The position numbers were made by a program, and so were the translations under genes. Shown here piece after piece: positions 1-55,217 of a stretch of DNA of 64,000 nt. The stretch comes from Lasiodiplodia sp. COLG20 (lineage: Eukaryota; Ascomycota; Dothideomycetes; Botryosphaeriales; Botryosphaeriaceae): assembly GCA_009801085.1 (NCBI GenBank), contig VNWV01000002.1, forward strand, positions 2,232,001 through 2,296,000. The letters run 5' to 3'. How positions within the stretch are numbered: position 1 is the first letter of the stretch; every line of letters begins with the position of its first letter. A model generated the notes under the pieces. It searched no databases. It was not told the DNA's origin and saw only the letters and a program-made list of their open reading frames with translations.

Positions 1-3000
1 GAAGAAACCCGAAGTCCGGTCATGATTGCGCTTCGTGATAATGCTCTCCTCCTCGGCTCTGGGCTCCTCGGCTGCTGGCTGCGGCGGCGGCACTGGCACC
101 GACGACCTCTTCCAGGTGATCTTCAAGAGTTCTTTTACGAACGCCTCGATAGGTTTCGCGAGTTTTTCGATGATGACGAGGGAGCCCGATCCGATGCCAA
201 TGCCTGTGCCCCATCCCCTCCTGGCGACAGCAGCGTCGGTGTTGCCGCCCTCGACGGCGACCTCGCTGCCCTCCACAGCCGGTGCTGGCGGTGAGCGCCG
301 CGACCAGCCCTCCAGCTCCGCCTCCGCCTCCGCCTCCAGCTCCTCCTCCTCCTCCCCCCTCTTCGTCTTCGTTGCACCATCATCAACCTTCTTCTTCGAC
401 TCCACCACCGGGTCGGAAGGAACCAGGCCCGTCACGACTCTCATGATGTAGTCGACGGCGATCTGGAGGGCGCTCTTTTTGCCTTCGGCCTCGGCGGCAA
501 CGTGAGCGACGGTGTTGCCATCGACGGTGAGGTCCAGTGCCACCGACGACCTCTTCATCCTCTTCCTCTTGTCGACCTCGTCGTCCGGCGGGGGATCGCC
601 GGCCGGGATGAACATGACTGGCGGCGTAGGATCTATTTCGCCCTGAATCGCACTGTCTATTATCCCAGCCCATTGGCCCGTCGTCCAGATGTCTTGTGGC
701 GACCTCTTCTTGGCAGCAACGGTGGTGTTGTCGTCGTCGTCGGTGGGGGCATGAGCATGAGCGAGATCGCGCGTCGCGACGTCGGTGAAGCAAAAGATGA
801 AGAATAATCTGCAGAGAATAAACTTGGCCGGCGTCCATTTCCGCTTGTCGAGCAGTGTGATGCTACTGCTGCTGCTGCCCTCGGCGGTGGCGACGGTTGC
901 ATCATCCGCGACGGCGGGAAGAAGATGGCGCTTGGTCACGACGTTGCTGCACCACCAGGGAAGTGGAGCTCCGCATTCCCGAAGGGCGCTCTCTTTCGCC
1001 TCGGGCTCGGCCGACCGCTTGCCAAGGGCGGTGTTATCGCTGCTGCTGCTGATCTGCGACGCAGCATCATCCAGACCACGACGCCAGACCACGGGGCAGA
1101 TGTAGAAGAATATGACACAGATGGCGGTCCTTGCCGGCTTCGAGAGCCTCTTGGCGATGATGGGCATGATGGGCATGTCGATGTCGCTGATGTCGCCGAA
1201 GCTGTCGTCGTCGCCGCCGTCCGCCAGCTCTCTCTTCTCCGGTCCATTGCCCTGAGCGTCTTTGCCATTTGACAGAATCGCCCACGGGCAAAGAAGGATG
1301 AAAAGTAGGCATATCGTCGCCTTCACCCCCGTCGGCATCGGTGGGTCCCCCCTCTTCGCGACGGTGACGGCAGAGCTGCTGCTGCTGCTGCCGCTGCCGC
1401 CGTCGGCCAGCTGTCTCTTTTCCCTTCCATCACCGTATAACGGGCACAAAAATGGCAGAAATATGCATGTCATCACCATCCCCGTCATTTCCGAGGTCGA
1501 TTTTACCCTCTTCACGAGGCTGACGACGGAGCTGCCGCTGCCACTGTTGTCACTGCCACTGCCGTCCACCAGCTGTCTCTTTCCGAGCTCTCCCGCCTCA
1601 TGTAATTCGTCCACCACCAGCCGTCTTCTCCTCTGTCCGCCGCCCTTTGGCCGATTGTCTATCTCCGAACTCATCGCGATCGGGCAGCCGACGAAGGGGA
1701 AAACAATGCAAATAGTGATCTTGAGCGCGTCAGGCATCCAGGGCGTCTTCCTCTTCGCAAGAAGATCAAGATCACGACGACGACGATGGTCGCCACTGCT
1801 GCCGTCTTCCGCCAGCTGCTGTCTTCTCTTCGGCTGATTTTCCTTCTCCGACACCATCGCGATCGGGCAGCCGATGAAGGGGAGAAGGAAGCACAGAGCG
1901 ATCTTGAGCCCGTCGGGCATCGGGGCCAACTTCCTCTTCGCAAGAAGACCAACATCACGACGCGTGACGACGGACCCGTCGAAGACGTTGCTGTCGCCCG
2001 CGACCGCGCTGCCGCCGCCCACCAGGCTCTCGCCGACGACGGTGCTGCCGTCGACGACGCTGGCCCCGTCCAGGATGTTGCTGTCGATGACGGTGCTGCC
2101 GCCCGCCACGGCGCTGCCGCCCAGCACGTCGCTGCCGCTCAGCGTCGAGCCTTCGGTCACGGCCGAATTGCCGGCGACGGTCGTGTCCTCCAGCGTGCTG
2201 TCGTCGATGACGGTGTCGTCGACGACGGTGCTGTGAAGGAGCGTGGTGTCTGAGACGGAGCTGTCGAGCACGCGGCTGTCGATGACGGTGCTGTTGGAGA
2301 TGATGGAGTCGTCGACGGTGCTGTTGGCGATGTTGCTTTGGTAGACGGCGCTGCCGCTGTTGATGTTGTTGCCGTTGTTATCACCGTTGTTGTTGTTGTT
2401 GTCATTGTTGTCGTTGTCGTCCTCGGTCTTCTTGAAAGTGGAGGAGTCGGTGCAGGTGCTGTCGTCGTTCTTCTTGGTGGTCGTGGCCGCCGCGGCCGAG
2501 CTGCTGTCGGCTTGCTTGTTGGCCGGGGGGTCATTGATGTTGGTGGAGACGACCTTGAACGGCCCGTTTTTCGTGACGCGCTGGGAGCCGGGGGACGGCT
2601 TCTTGGTGGTGGTGGCTGCGGAAGGGTTGTTGTCGGCCTTCTTGGCATCAGGCTTCTTGTCAGCGGGCTTCTTTCCATCAGGCTTCTTGTCGAAGGGTTT
2701 CTTGTCGGCAGGCTTCTTTTCGGCGGGCTTCTTTTCGGCAGGCTTCTGGTCGGCAGACTGCTTCTCGGCGGACTGCTTCTCGGCGGGCTTCTCATCAACA
2801 GACTGCTCCTCGGCGAACTGCATCCCGGCAGGCTTCTCATCATCAACGGGCTGCATCTCATTGAACTGCATCTCATCGACGGGCTGTATCTCAGCGGGCT
2901 GCATGACGGGAATGACCTCGACATCAGTCTTCCAATACGGGAACAGCCTGTTGAAGTACGTGGTGGTCGTCTCGACGGCGCGCTTCTTCTTCTTCTTGTA

Positions 3001-3204
3001 CGGAGCCGTGAGCAGCGTCGTCGCCGTCATGTTGGAGTGCCGCGGCGGTCCTTGCGCCGGGAGAGGCCAGTTGACGGGCTTCGCGAACATGGGGTCTTCG
3101 ACGACAACATGGCGACCTGGCCCCACGCTCCCCGTGATTGGGACAGCGGTGGCCAGCTCGCCGGCTAGGAGGCCGTAGAGGAGGAGGGGGACGTGGGGCT
3201 TCAT
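1..3204 (-). CDS. Secreted Kex2-processed repeat precursor (partial, 3' end off window)
   Basis: The frame is open from an ATG at 3204 to position 1, 1068 codons without a stop, so the 3' end lies outside the window. Residues 1-20 are a signal peptide (hydrophobic LLLYGLLAGELATA, then VPITG). Lys-Pro-rich KPAEK/KPADK repeats fill about residues 120-190. An Asn/Asp tract follows, then STVxDS-like repeats at about 289-414. From 415 on, dibasic KR/RR sites cut the chain: for example 415-416, 423-424, 484-485, 542-543, 565-566, 596-597, 617-618, 657-658, 685-686, 729-730, 758-759, 787-788, 879-880 and 1058-1059. Seven segments carry a Cys pair with 6-7 residues between (438/446, 499/507, 580/587, 632/639, 696/703, 744/752, 798/805), five of them ending CP. 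Kex2-processed repeat precursors in fungi release several peptides (RiPP-like, pheromone-like or cell-surface); which applies here is unknown. No modifying enzyme is visible nearby. An intron or pseudogene is unlikely given the signal peptide and the unbroken frame. Confidence 0.85.
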   Translation of the reverse strand, partial: MKPHVPLLLYGLLAGELATAVPITGSVGPGRHVVVEDPMFAKPVNWPLPAQGPPRHSNMTATTLLTAPYKKKKKRAVETTTTYFNRLFPYWKTDVEVIPVMQPAEIQPVDEMQFNEMQPVDDEKPAGMQFAEEQSVDEKPAEKQSAEKQSADQKPAEKKPAEKKPADKKPFDKKPDGKKPADKKPDAKKADNNPSAATTTKKPSPGSQRVTKNGPFKVVSTNINDPPANKQADSSSAAAATTTKKNDDSTCTDSSTFKKTEDDNDNNDNNNNNGDNNGNNINSGSAVYQSNIANSTVDDSIISNSTVIDSRVLDSSVSDTTLLHSTVVDDTVIDDSTLEDTTVAGNSAVTEGSTLSGSDVLGGSAVAGGSTVIDSNILDGASVVDGSTVVGESLVGGGSAVAGDSNVFDGSVVTRRDVGLLAKRKLAPMPDGLKIALCFLLPFIGCPIAMVSEKENQPKRRQQLAEDGSSGDHRRRRDLDLLAKRKTPWMPDALKITICIVFPFVGCPIAMSSEIDNRPKGGGQRRRRLVVDELHEAGELGKRQLVDGSGSDNSGSGSSVVSLVKRVKSTSEMTGMVMTCIFLPFLCPLYGDGREKRQLADGGSGSSSSSSAVTVAKRGDPPMPTGVKATICLLFILLCPWAILSNGKDAQGNGPEKRELADGGDDDSFGDISDIDMPIMPIIAKRLSKPARTAICVIFFYICPVVWRRGLDDAASQISSSSDNTALGKRSAEPEAKESALRECGAPLPWWCSNVVTKRHLLPAVADDATVATAEGSSSSSITLLDKRKWTPAKFILCRLFFIFCFTDVATRDLAHAHAPTDDDDNTTVAAKKRSPQDIWTTGQWAGIIDSAIQGEIDPTPPVMFIPAGDPPPDDEVDKRKRMKRSSVALDLTVDGNTVAHVAAEAEGKKSALQIAVDYIMRVVTGLVPSDPVVESKKKVDDGATKTKRGEEEEELEAEAEAELEGWSRRSPPAPAVEGSEVAVEGGNTDAAVARRGWGTGIGIGSGSLVIIEKLAKPIEAFVKELLKITWKRSSVPVPPPQPAAEEPRAEEESIITKRNHDRTSGFF

Positions 3205-6091: not shown

Positions 6092-8115
6092 TCAGATCAT
6101 GCCGGCCCAGTTCCCTCCGTAGCCTTTTATCGAGGCGCCGACAACGCTGTCGTGTTGCTGATGGTGCGGTGTCGGAACATGGACGAGATGGTTCATGTAC
6201 GACTGCTGCGGCGCCTGCTGCGGTTGCTGATGCATTACCTGGTGTTGCGACACCATTGGCCCACGCCCACCGCGAGGCGAAGGCGTCGAGTCACTCCCAG
6301 GCGTCGTGGCGCCATAGGGAATTGAGTCTGGGATAGACTGCTCCTGCTTGATCGACGGAGTGCTCTGTTGGGGGTGGCTGCTGCTGTTAGGGCGCGAAGA
6401 CGAAAGCGAGACGGCAGTCGAAGGCCGGGTACTGCTAGCACCCCCGGCATTGCGAGAAGCCTGCTGCGAGGAAGTCTCGCGGCGACGCTTGGGACCATCT
6501 TTGGCCTTTGGATGAGTGTGACACTAGGAGACAGACATGTCAGTGTGACTGCAGTGGATGATTGGTTGACAATGGTAATGAAAGTCCCGAACATGACGCG
6601 TAAAAGCGTAGAGCTGAAATATGAGACCGATACAAGGGAGGGTTGTTAGAGGATATGGGAAGGATCCCTTACCTTGTAAGCGTGCCTGAACCACGTCGTG
6701 CCCTTCTTTTTGCTGCTGACCAGCGCTACCCAGTCGCCGCAGCTGCCACACAAGCCTTCCCACACGTCCAGGTTTCCCTCTGTGCGACGGGTATCCTGCG
6801 GACCCTGGAAAGCGGCGCCCGTGTTCGCACTGACGCCATGCGTGAACGACTTGTCGTACCAATAAGCGCTATTCTTCAGCACGAGCCACCTGCCCGGTTT
6901 GCACAGTCCGCACCAGCCCTCGCGCTTGTTGCCGTGCCCACGGACCCAGCGGGGGGTGTAGAGATCGCCCTCGAAGCGCAATTCCTGTTCCTTGGGCACC
7001 ATGTCGGGATCCGACGGGTGGAAATCCGCTTCCGGGGGGTCGGAAGGTTCCTGCTGCAGGGATGCGTACAGGTTAGGTGGCTCGGAGAAATCGGCGAAAT
7101 GGGCGGAGCAGCCGTGGTGCTGGTGGTCATTGCTCTGGAGCAGGCCATACATGCCCTGGGACGGAACAGGACGGGGGGCCTCCAATTGGTAGCGCTGGTG
7201 CGGAGGAGAGAACATTGGGCCCTGGGTGGATGGCAGCGGGTGCGGCTGCGAGGAGAGCACGTATTGGGACTGCGGGCGGTGCATGCTCATGGTGGTCGCG
7301 CCAAAAGCGGGCATCGACTGCGGGTTGAGGCGCTGGCCGTAGTTTGCAAAGCGATCCTGGACCTGGTGGACGGCGAGAGCCGGGGTCGACGTGGGTGCAG
7401 CGCCCGTCATGCCGGTTGACCACCTCTTCATGCGGTCGCTCTCGAGGGTGTAGGGCGACGAGCGAACGCTGGAGTGGCTGTGGGGGCCCGGCGAGGCGCC
7501 ACCGCGGCTTACGGTCCGCACGGGATCGTGGCGTTGCGGGGAGGTCAGGGGCGACAGGAGGTTGGGAGAAGGGTCCATGGGTGCCCAGCTGTCATAGTCA
7601 GACGCTGTGTAGGAGTGGGTGTCGGTCGTCTCGGACGAAAAGTCATCGTACGTGAAGCCAGTGCCGGTGCTCGTCGTCGAGAACGAGGCGCCGGAGAAGC
7701 GCTGCGAGGGGTTCTGCAGATAGCCGGTGTTGGGGTCCTGGCGCATGGTCGGGTTCTGCCTGAGATCAATGATGGGACTGTCCTCGTCGTGCGTCATGAA
7801 GGTAGGGTTGAAGTCGGGCATGTCTGGATCCATGTTAGGATAGTCCATCATCTCACACGCCTTTTGACACCATGATTCTGCGGAGGTCGTCAGGATTAAT
7901 ATCAGCGTGCTGGCGGGCGACGTACCAGTGTCGGCATGGGCGGGCTGGGCAGGGTAGCACTCGGTGCCTGAAGCGGAAGCAGGCCGCCAATGGTACTTCT
8001 GGCCACCCATGCTCGAGGGGCGCGAGGTGGCAGGCGGCTTCATGTCTGGCTGTGGCACCGACCACGTGCTGGCTGGCTGAAAGGGTTGCGCTTGTGCATT
8101 GCCATACGAATACAT
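6092..8115 (-). CDS. Rua1-type (DUF4451) zinc-binding transcription regulator
   Basis: Three exons are joined as complement(6092..6523, 6673..7877, 7926..8115), giving 608 residues with in-frame introns of 149 and 48 bp. The long N-terminal part is Ser/Pro/Gln/Met rich and disordered. The C-terminal third has the Rua1 C-terminal hallmark: LYTPRWVRG, then GWCGLCKPGRWL, KNSAYWYD, WEGLCGSCGDW, WFRHAYK and, across the last intron, CHTHPKAK. The Cys and His residues probably bind zinc. A basic KRRR stretch and a Gln-rich tail follow. Rua1 of Ustilago activates a glycolipid cluster; the ascomycete homologues are mostly uncharacterised, so only DNA binding and regulation are inferred. The frame stays open upstream of the chosen ATG back to about 8187, reaching an AG acceptor. 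A further 5' exon is therefore likely and the true start may lie upstream. Confidence 0.8.
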
Positions 8116-52192: not shown

Positions 52193-55100
52193 ATGCTTGC
52201 CCGGCAATCTTTGGGCGCATCAGTATGTCTACGATGCCGACTTAACCAGGCGCGATTGTTGCGTCTTGGACGCGCGCCTGTCGCACCTCTCGCCGCCGCC
52301 ACCACGATCTCATCCTCGTCCGCCTCGACCTTCACGAGCCTTGCCCGCCAATTACGAGCCAGTGAGCCATTCGCTGTCCCAGATGCCTTCCAGCCCGAAA
52401 TCCGTCGAGACACCTCTGAATCCAACCCGCTCAATCCCGTCATTCGCCATGTGTCCATAGAATCTCATAAAGGAATCAAGAGTAGTCGCGGGCACACGAC
52501 AAAGCACATTAAGCTCGACAAGCCCATCAGGGTCAATCGCAAGGGAGAGAGGATAAAAGAGATCTCGGCCCCGCTGCAGCGGAAATACCTGGGCGAGGAT
52601 TCGGAGGTGCTCATCCTGCGGGACATCACGCCCATACGGAAGAAAGAGAGGCAGTATCACGACGTCGACGATGCTTCTTCTTCTTCGGACACGGCCGCCA
52701 CGGGCGAGGAAGACGCCGCGACGAAGCGGCGGAGGGAGATACGAGAGGCGCTCGAGGCGTCGATAGCGGGCAAGCAGGCCGTGGCGGGCCAGGAAGAGGC
52801 CAACGAGCAGATCAACAAGCTGCGCCCGGTGTCGACCGAGGGCCCGCAGTACCCGGCTTTCATCTTGCGCAAGGACTTCAAGGCGCTGCGCACGGCGCTC
52901 AAGGACGGCTACGCCGTGGCTCAGCTGCGCCGCTACGCGGACGTGCAGGAGGACCTGGACCAGCTGCAGCAGCTGAAGCGCGAGGAGCGCGCGGAGCTGG
53001 GCGTGCTGTGGGAGTCGGCTTGGCAGGAAGGCACCTCGTCTATCGAGCAGAGGCTGCCCGAGGCCGATAGGCCGGATGTGCCGGTCGCTGCGCTGCCTAA
53101 GATGAAGGTGGTGGACCGGATCATAAGAGGGTTGTGGGGCGTGGGTGTCATCGAGGAGAGCGACGCGGTGGGCGAGATTGAGATCAAGCTTGAGCCGTGG
53201 CAGTTTGATCTTTTGACACTCGCGAAGCGTAAGGCAGCCTCGTGCGTGTGGTCCGCAGCTCTGCTAACCTTTTGCTGCAGAGAGCGAGAATTTCACCGTC
53301 CTCGACAATATCGGACATCAACGAAAAGTCCGGATTGAGTCGTATCGTCCCGAGAATATTCTTCGGTTCATCGCGGAGAGAGAGACCGCCGAGGCAGCTG
53401 TCACCGATATCGAGCGCCTGCTGAGACGGTTTTTGATCAAGAAGTTAGACTTGCAGGACTTCGAGTCGCTGCGTCAAAAGCGCGGTCTAGAGAAATTGAG
53501 GGATTTCTTCTCCCAGAGGGATTTGGAGTTCACTGCGAGATTGAGCAACACCGTCATCGACAGCTCATCCGAGTCCGCGGTAAGAGCGAGCGTTTCCCCC
53601 AGACTGGTAATCGCTGACTGTTTGCAGATCATGATCTACGCCATGGATACTAGCACTTTCGAGTTGGCACGACGAATCCTTATCAACATAATAAATCCTC
53701 CTTCTGGCGCCGAAACCAGCATTGTGGCCGATGCTGAAGGAGAGGGCTTCTTACAGACCAGCGGCGCTGACAGTTCATTACACCACCGGGATAGAAAGAA
53801 AAACTACGCACGCTGGACCTTTCCAGTCAAAAGAGAGGAGCCTACGCGCGAGGCGAGTCAAACTTTGGATGAAGAGCCGGCATCCGAAATACTGGAGGAT
53901 TCCACGGATACTCCGACGGAGGCACAGCCTGGCCACACTCCTGGTGACGGAACACAGGAAGCTGGCAGCGCTAACAGTCGATCGCAACCTGCTCAGAAAG
54001 TCATCGATTTCTTCACCTCACGATTTGGCCGTTCGAGTGATGCCTCAAGGGAGCCTCACGGCGCAACCCAAAAGGACTCTCTCTGGTCGCCTTTTCCGCT
54101 GATTGAGTACTATGCCACTTTTGGCAATATCCTTCACAAGCCTCCTCCAACCAACGACCCGCTATCGCCAATCTCCTTTCAAAACTTAGTCGAGCACGAA
54201 GGTGGTCCCAAGCGCATCTTCCTCCATACCCTTCCTGGATTCAGTCCGTTTCTACAACATATCACGTCCGAAGCAAGTCTCTCTCGCCATTGGAACGACG
54301 TATTACTGCCTGATGCTCTCCTTTTCCGCTTCATACCATCTCCGTGGGACCTCGAAGATCCATCCTCGCTGGAAGATTTCCCGGAGATGGGATTGCGGAT
54401 TCAGGTTAACCCACTATCGGGCAAAGCACGTTTCCAAGGATTGGGCATGACGCTTCGAGAGCGAAACATGGACGTGCTGATGCCTGGAAAGCCGGTTGAT
54501 GTCCGGTTCACCCAGCGTGAGGTTCTTTGGACGGAACAGGTCCTGGAGCGTTCTCACGAACTTCGGGGTTATCTCACTCGTATCACCACCAACATCGACG
54601 GCGGCGGAGCCATTCGAGCTCCTCCGACGCTAACAATACGGATTCCTGCTTGGTCTGTGAAGAATTCGGAGAAGTACAAACATCTACCGGTCGAGTTCAC
54701 GAAGTTCGGAAAAGAGTACATCAAGGAGTTCATCTACACCGGCGTCGAGCACAGGCAGATGTCCAGATACGACCTTCCAAACGGCCAGCACCGCGTGTCT
54801 TACACGTCTGTCGAAGGCGGCAGGATGGGTGGGCGTCGCGGCGAATTGCGTCTACGGCTTCGGAGGCCTGCCAAGACCACGGAGCAGTTGAAAGCACAGG
54901 TGCCGGGACTGGTCGAAGAGGCGTTCAACATAGCGTCTACGATCGAGGATGCCGTGCACCACAGGTTGCAGCCATCTGAGCCGAACGTCAAAAGTTATAC
55001 GTATCATAGCAGCTACAAGAGGCTCTCGCGTGAGGGAACGTGGGAGGAACCGCTGCCGCCCAATTACAGGGAACCTGATGATGAGGGTGGCAAGAATGTG

Positions 55101-55217
55101 GAGAAGGCGGCGTCGGAGGGTGGCGAGACTGAGCAGGCCACTGCCCAGGCAGAGGAAGAAGCTAATAACGCGCGCGTCGTGGATGGTGATGCGCCGTTGC
55201 AACCGGGTGCGAATTGA
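52193..55217 (+). CDS. SLS1: Mitochondrial inner-membrane regulator SLS1
   Basis: Three exons (52193..53228, 53281..53579, 53628..55217) encode 974 residues. The 48-bp second intron is in frame and would add 16 residues if retained. The N-terminus MLARQSLGASVCLRCRLNQA is an Arg-rich mitochondrial presequence. The SLS domain covers most of the chain: PAFILRKDFKALRTALKDGY, VVDRIIRGLWGVGV, SENFTVLDNIGHQRKVRIES, LIKKLDLQDFESLRQKRGLE and SWSVKNSEKYKHLPVEF-type segments near the C-terminal third. In yeast Sls1 binds the mitochondrial RNA polymerase through Nam1 and couples transcription to translation at the inner membrane. A Glu/Ala-rich tail ends the protein. It lies 332 bp downstream of the NT-C2 gene on the same strand and 1.1 kb upstream of TEF1. 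Confidence 0.88.

What the first reader, a model, noticed from the sequence alone, without database searches (positions are those of the whole stretch)
1..1990. Kex2-type precursor with seven diversified two-cysteine cassettes
The sequence shows a secreted ORF over 1068 codons long whose C-terminal two thirds is cut by KR/RR sites into segments. Seven contain C-x(6-7)-C with a hydrophobic interior (LCFLLPFIGCP, ICIVFPFVGCP, CIFLPFLCP, ICLLFILLCP, ICVIFFYICP and two more diverged). Several share an upstream MPxxxK motif. The spacing is conserved while the interior varies, as expected for a precursor releasing a family of small cyclised or disulphide-bonded peptides. Fungal Kex2-processed repeat precursors are known, but this hydrophobic C-x6/7-C-P core is not one I recognise. 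Function is open: RiPP-like product, surface-active peptides or signalling.
Basis: partly seen in the sequence, partly recalled or inferred. Interest (0 to 1): 0.92.

Follow-up and report, generated by a model that had tools for sequence, protein, structure and literature searches.

The report
Fungal polyprotein of hydrophobic two-cysteine peptides
A plant-associated fungus appears to make one long secreted protein built to be cut into a family of short, very hydrophobic peptides that each carry two cysteines; the cutting pattern looks real, but what the peptides do is not known.

Summary
The minus-strand frame starts at window 3204 with a signal-like N-terminus and stops 44 bases left of the window: 1082 codons, with no intron candidate touching the cassettes. 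Fourteen of 15 cysteines form seven pairs spaced 6 or 7; 19 of 20 KR sites lie after residue 416. Pair interiors are 44 of 45 nonpolar. New here: the KR just upstream of all 7 cassettes has Leu/Ile/Val at P4, a published Kex2 preference (PMC8528282), against 4 of 13 other KR sites. So it is very probably a Kex2-processed polyprotein. One neighbour gene is nearest to Lasiodiplodia. No paralogue and no database homologue was found. No UstYa match lies on this contig, so a dikaritin RiPP is disfavoured; disulphides are untested. Best reading: a stand-alone KEP releasing interface-active peptides, working like Ustilago Rep1, plus one amphipathic C-terminal peptide. A lytic Ece1-like role or an uncut membrane protein remains possible. 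New variant of a known kind; function is inferred, not shown.

The parts
1..3204 (-). polyprotein precursor gene; continues 44 bases beyond the left end of the window (1082 codons in all)
   Evidence: open frame; codon usage in this frame 0.154 against -0.227, -0.167 (other sense frames), 0.060, 0.006, -0.157 (antisense) and a uniform-synonymous null maximum of -0.142
3145..3204 (-). signal-peptide-like N-terminus (residues 1-20, by eye; no signal peptide program was run)
   Evidence: hydrophobic stretch LLLYGLLAG followed by ATA
2605..2802 (-). Lys/Pro-rich KKPAD-type low-complexity stretch (about residues 135-200)
   Evidence: sequence; only composition-driven histone-like hits
1957..2349 (-). 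Ser/Thr/Val/Gly-rich stretch, possible beta-solenoid (residues 286-416)
1825..1932 (-). cassette 1, CFLLPFIGC, upstream site LLAKR
1774..1824 (-). spacer (R)QQLAEDG...
1621..1749 (-). cassette 2, CIVFPFVGC, upstream site LLAKR; near duplicate of cassette 1
1507..1575 (-). spacer QLVDGSGS...
1414..1506 (-). cassette 3, CIFLPFLC, upstream site SLVKR
1351..1413 (-). spacer QLADGGSGS...
1231..1350 (-). cassette 4, CLLFILLC, upstream site TVAKR
1147..1230 (-). spacer ELADGGDDD...
1078..1146 (-). cassette 5, CVIFFYIC, upstream site IIAKR
928..1014 (-). cassette 6, CGAPLPWWC, upstream site ALGKR; least alike
703..840 (-). cassette 7, CRLFFIFC, upstream site LLDKR
106..216 (-). C-terminal KR/RR-bounded amphipathic segment (residues 997-1033), no Cys
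   Evidence: highest 18-residue hydrophobic moment of the protein, 0.68

Best explanation
A stand-alone Kex2-processed polyprotein (KEP). The protein enters the secretory pathway; Kex2 cuts at the aliphatic-x-KR sites, freeing seven hydrophobic two-Cys peptides of 21-43 residues (KR ends removed) from acidic, Ser-rich spacers that keep the precursor soluble; Kex1 would trim the basic ends. The peptides then gather at interfaces (hyphal surface, air or plant surface, membrane), perhaps joined by disulphides between molecules, and so work like the Rep1 repellents of Ustilago maydis; the C-terminal amphipathic segment may be a separate membrane-active product. Shown by sequence: the frame, pairs, sites, spacing, hydrophobicity and P4 pattern. 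Inferred: secretion, cutting, trimming, assembly and function.
For: Cys pairing and KR number far above shuffles; interiors 44 of 45 nonpolar, p 1e-10, and 37 of 38 with the duplicate dropped, p 6e-9; P4 Leu/Ile/Val at 7 of 7 upstream sites, p 1.5e-5 (6 of 6, p 7e-5 with the duplicate counted once), against 4 of 13 other KR sites; four spacers share [QE]L[AV][DE]; two P_proprotein (kexin-type) genes in the genome; cassette size overlaps that of Rep1 peptides, 35-53 aa (PMC4617103 passages); no intron candidate reaches the cassettes.
Against: No homologue, transcript or peptide. The sites downstream of the cassettes do not follow the P4 rule well, and cassette 7's upstream site has Asp at P3, said to be unfavourable. 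Three cassette stretches exceed 1.6 in 19-residue Kyte-Doolittle windows, so some might be taken as membrane spans. dN exceeds dS between cassettes 1 and 2 (0.237, 0.156), not significant (p 0.78): there is no sign of purifying selection there; preservation of hydrophobic type in five changes has chance about 0.04. The upstream/other split of KR sites was made after seeing the sequence.
Confidence: 0.5

Rival explanations
1. Ece1-like polyprotein: one product, most likely the C-terminal amphipathic segment, permeabilises membranes, and the Cys cassettes are companions or co-factors.
For: Residues 997-1033 have the highest hydrophobic moment (0.68) and lie between RR and KR; Ece1 frees one lytic peptide among eight moieties (PMC7329392 passage) through Kex2 then Kex1 (PMC5784256 passages).
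Against: The segment is one of several and has net charge +1 only; it does not explain why seven two-Cys cassettes were kept. Sequences were not compared with Ece1.
Confidence: 0.2
2. The protein is not cut into peptides but stays as a wall or membrane protein with several short hydrophobic spans; the KR sites are incidental or partly used.
For: 19-residue hydropathy of 2.18, 2.14 and 2.01 in cassettes 1, 4 and 2; the weak model of cassette 1 is helical.
Against: KR number and P4 pattern; spans are short and broken by Pro/Gly in several cassettes; the KR sites bracket each span.
Confidence: 0.15
3. Dikaritin-type RiPP precursor whose cores are cyclised.
For: Signal peptide plus KR-bounded repeats is the shared architecture (PMC7329392).
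Against: 22 UstYa matches, none on C12; only one Tyr in the seven interiors, while Tyr is called mandatory for that cyclisation (PMC7329392 section 9). Genes for 22% of KEPs lie near DUF3328 genes, so lack of one is common.
Confidence: 0.05
4. Diverged alpha-type pheromone or other two-Cys signalling peptides.
For: Alpha-type pheromones of many Pezizomycotina carry two conserved Cys, also in 13 Dothideomycetes (PMC6339444 passages); an STE2 receptor gene is present; no canonical pheromone repeat was recognised elsewhere in the genome in the places examined.
Against: Cassettes are long, strongly hydrophobic and all different, unlike the short near-identical copies of pheromone precursors.
Confidence: 0.05

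Closest known systems
Rep1 of Ustilago maydis (repellents)
   Same: long secreted precursor cut by Kex2 into ten peptides of 35-53 aa that are amphipathic and surface-active (PMC4617103 passages)
   Different: no sequence comparison was made; here paired Cys around a nonpolar interior, peptides alternate with Ser/acidic spacers, and a long N-terminal part precedes them
KEPs (Kex2-processed repeat proteins), stand-alone class
   Same: signal-like N-terminus, many KR-bounded pieces, no homologue; 2560 of 7878 KEPs are stand-alone (PMC7329392)
   Different: cassettes are too diverged to be plain repeats (cassette 1 against 3, 5, 6 and 7: 29-30% identity)
Ece1 of Candida albicans
   Same: polyprotein with unlike moieties and an amphipathic one
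   Different: paired Cys cassettes and a possible beta-solenoid; Ece1 is 271 aa, this is 1082
Dikaritins (ustiloxin type)
   Same: Kex2-cut precursor
   Different: no UstYa match on the contig
Alpha-type sexual pheromones
   Same: two Cys in a Kex2-freed peptide; a six-residue spacing, as in the printed Xylona motif with its two Cys
   Different: not short, not near-identical, interior nonpolar

Membership tests
KEP (Kex2-processed repeat protein) | signal peptide | tested here: inconclusive
   looks like one by eye; SignalP not available
KEP (Kex2-processed repeat protein) | at least four fragments on cutting at KR/RR (PMC6339444) | tested here: met
   24 stretches ending in KR or RR plus a C-terminal tail
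KEP (Kex2-processed repeat protein) | at least three similar repeated motifs between sites, by the authors' own programs | tested here: inconclusive
   mean pair score of the seven Cys-aligned cores 6.0 against a shuffle maximum of -1.0 in 2000, driven in part by cassettes 1 and 2; the authors' pipelines were not run
KEP (Kex2-processed repeat protein) | not membrane-located by TMHMM (PMC6339444) | not tested
   program not available; three 19-residue windows above 1.6 suggest it might be discarded
KEP (Kex2-processed repeat protein) | peptides released by Kex2 | not testable with these tools
   only the P4 pattern, 7 of 7 upstream sites
Dikaritin RiPP | UstYa/DUF3328 gene nearby | tested here: not met
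   22 matches, none on contig C12
Alpha-type pheromone precursor | short near-identical two-Cys repeats | tested here: not met
   cassettes of 23-46 residues with their dibasic ends, all different
Alpha-type pheromone precursor | STE13 XA/XP dipeptides after the Kex2 site | tested here: not met
   the first residues after the seven upstream KR are KL, KT, VK, GD, LS, SA, KW; only cassette 6 begins SA, followed by EP, so one weak case
Rep1 repellent | amyloid-like, surface-active peptides on hyphae | not testable with these tools
   needs peptides
Ece1/candidalysin | sequence relation to Ece1 | not tested
Pentapeptide/hexapeptide beta-solenoid (middle part) | solenoid fold | tested here: inconclusive
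   hydrophobic period 5 power 1.59 and period 6 power 0.78, within the shuffle range (maximum 2.04); Pfam LbH hits far under their cut-offs

The most novel reading that the evidence does not exclude
A lineage-restricted fungal polyprotein that makes a diversifying set of membrane- or interface-inserting two-Cys peptides, with spacing and hydrophobic type kept while the interior letters change, freed from a secreted precursor with a solenoid-like pro-part: a peptide class that repeat-based and membrane-filtered KEP surveys would tend to miss.
Probability: 0.3. Interest if true: 0.75.

Novelty: new variant of a known kind. Interest (0 to 1): 0.55.

Why it matters
If the cassettes are released, they are a two-Cys hydrophobic peptide family that I did not find described in seven paper searches (the supplementary KEP tables could not be read). 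The aliphatic-P4 sites upstream of each cassette give a simple search rule for diverged KEPs: look for aliphatic-x-KR sites and Cys spacing, not for near-identical repeats. The two published survey methods that I read ask for repeats that score as alike, and one removes proteins with predicted membrane spans, so such precursors may be under-counted (inference, not tested).

Tried and rejected
Homologues: whole protein (E up to 0.001) and residues 419-720 (E up to 10) gave none, not even the protein itself, so this gene is not in that database. Only about 8000 candidates sharing most words, of 0.55-1.75 times its length, were scored each time. A control with a neighbour gave 8 hits, the best 89% to a Lasiodiplodia theobromae protein, so Botryosphaeriaceae proteins are held; absence of this gene there may still be an annotation gap. 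Paralogues: two own-genome searches found only the gene itself at E up to 1.

Pheromone check: pattern W-C-x6-C-W had 103 matches against 55 for the reversed control; 16 places chosen by eye were fetched and none had a KR-rich repeat frame. Pattern C-x6-C-W-K-R had 20 matches, control 9; 5 places fetched, none looked like a precursor. Pattern C-x3-G-Q-P-C had 20 matches, control 8; 18 fetched, none looked like a pheromone precursor. So the genome's alpha-pheromone was not identified, which neither helps nor harms the rival. The first loose pattern search was of no use.

Solenoid: hydrophobic period not above shuffles; structure weak. Low-complexity hits to histone-like and ribosomal proteins rejected as composition. 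Positive selection on cassettes 1 and 2 rejected as unproven (p 0.78). Loose intron candidates, 19, all lie within residues 27-149; strict ones, none. Of the antisense frames one scores weakly positive in codon usage (0.060); I take it as an echo of GC-rich third positions.

Full report
What is there. On the minus strand a frame of 1068 codons fills window 1-3204. Taken on into the genome (contig C12 of an 88-contig, 43.5 Mb assembly) it reaches a stop 44 bases left of the window, 1082 codons. The N-terminus looks like a signal peptide by eye. Codon usage trained on six other frames of the window favours this frame (0.154) over the two other sense frames (-0.227, -0.167) and the three antisense frames (0.060, 0.006, -0.157); a uniform choice among synonyms gives at most -0.142 in 500 trials. 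With a strict intron consensus there is no candidate; with a loose donor there are 19 combinations, all within residues 27-149, away from the cassettes.

Anatomy. After the signal-like part come a stretch ending in KKKKKR (residue 75), a Lys/Pro-rich stretch, an Asn-rich linker and a Ser/Thr/Val/Gly-rich stretch up to residue 416. From 417 the protein is cut up by KR and RR. The seven pieces with Cys pairs are residues 425-460, 486-528, 567-597, 619-658, 687-709, 731-759 and 789-834. Between them lie Ser-rich or acidic pieces; four share [QE]L[AV][DE] at or near the start (residues 463, 544, 598, 659). After 834 come further KR- or RR-bounded pieces without Cys, among them residues 997-1033, with the strongest amphipathic 18-residue window of the protein (0.68).

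More than chance. 15 Cys in 1082 residues, 14 of them in seven pairs spaced 6 or 7: 20,000 shuffles gave at most 4 pairs, 200,000 random placements at most 4. KR occurs 20 times against a mean of 3.76 and a maximum of 12 in the shuffles. The 45 interior residues hold one polar residue, an Arg in cassette 7; 44 of 45 nonpolar has p about 1e-10 against the background of residues 417-834, and 37 of 38 without cassette 2 has p 6e-9. The Cys-aligned cores resemble each other more than shuffled ones (6.0 against a maximum of -1.0), but much of that is cassettes 1 and 2, and cassette 6 scores below zero with all others.

Kex2 sites. A review states that Kex2 prefers Leu or another aliphatic residue at P4 and dislikes Asp at P3 (PMC8528282, first of three parts of the text read). 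In this protein the KR just before each cassette has P4 = L, L, L, V, I, L, L: 7 of 7, where Leu/Ile/Val make 20.4% of the C-terminal part (p 1.5e-5; 6 of 6 with the duplicate counted once, 7e-5). The other KR sites have it in 4 of 13; all 20 together in 11. This is evidence that the cassette N-termini are true cut sites, made after the sequence was seen, and it is weaker for the downstream sites. Cassette 7 has Asp at P3. The genome has two kexin-type P_proprotein genes.

Change between cassettes. Cassettes 1 and 2 are 81% identical in DNA over 111 bases, dS 0.156, dN 0.237; the excess of dN is not significant (p 0.78). The five hydrophobic-to-hydrophobic changes at and inside the Cys pair have a chance of about 0.04 of all keeping the type. 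So neither diversifying nor purifying selection is proved; the type of residue seems to be kept while the letters change.

Surroundings and organism. A neighbour (53433-55217) is 89% identical to a Lasiodiplodia theobromae protein, then 50% to Macrophomina, 45% to Neofusicoccum and 36% to Aplosporella, so the genome is Botryosphaeriaceae, most likely Lasiodiplodia. Neighbours tested with Pfam: 9 (Rua1-type regulator, TPR, AAA, ferric reductase, adenosine deaminase, eEF1A; 3 without a family) and 8 (UPF0261, MFS, TPR, alcohol dehydrogenase, KH, UAA transporter; 2 without a family). The MFS transporter and dehydrogenase lie roughly 10-20 kb to the left; I see no sign of a cluster, but not all genes were tested. 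UstYa: 22 matches, none on C12.

What it most likely is. A KEP in the sense of PMC6339444 (abstract, passages, sections 10 and 24 seen) and PMC7329392 (abstract, passages, sections 9 and 13 seen): of 7878 KEPs 2560 had no homologue, and 22% were near DUF3328 genes. The cassettes' length and nonpolar middle point to interface-active peptides such as Rep1, whose Kex2 products of 35-53 aa form surface-active fibrils (PMC4617103 and PMC9769878, passages only). The amphipathic C-terminal piece allows an Ece1-like role (PMC5784256, passages only). Which of these holds cannot be settled from sequence. AlphaFold with the seven cassettes as alignment gave a weak helix (pLDDT 62.5, pTM 0.31), which argues mildly against a bond within one peptide and fits either a membrane-lying or a membrane-spanning form.

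What is new. Seven paper searches listed no paper on hydrophobic two-Cys KEP cassettes by title or the abstract openings shown; no held paper has both Lasiodiplodia and Kex2. The KEP tables in supplements could not be read, so the protein or a relative may be listed there. I rate it a new variant of a known kind.

Noticed in passing
window 106-216 (-): KR/RR-bounded amphipathic segment without Cys near the C-terminus, the most amphipathic 18-residue stretch of the protein.
   Followed up: partly
window 1957-2349 (-): Ser/Thr/Val/Gly-rich stretch that one of five models folds as a beta-solenoid, weakly.
   Followed up: partly
window 2605-2802 (-): Lys/Pro-rich KKPAD-type repeat stretch with many KK pairs in the same precursor.
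   Followed up: no
window 6646-8115 (-): Next gene to the right has a Rua1 C-terminal domain (transcription regulator).
   Followed up: no
G000 contigs C7, C34, C57: Several UstYa matches lie close together (C7:294873-301323, C34:13567-17679, C57:26752-30607), which look like dikaritin-type clusters elsewhere in this genome.
   Followed up: no
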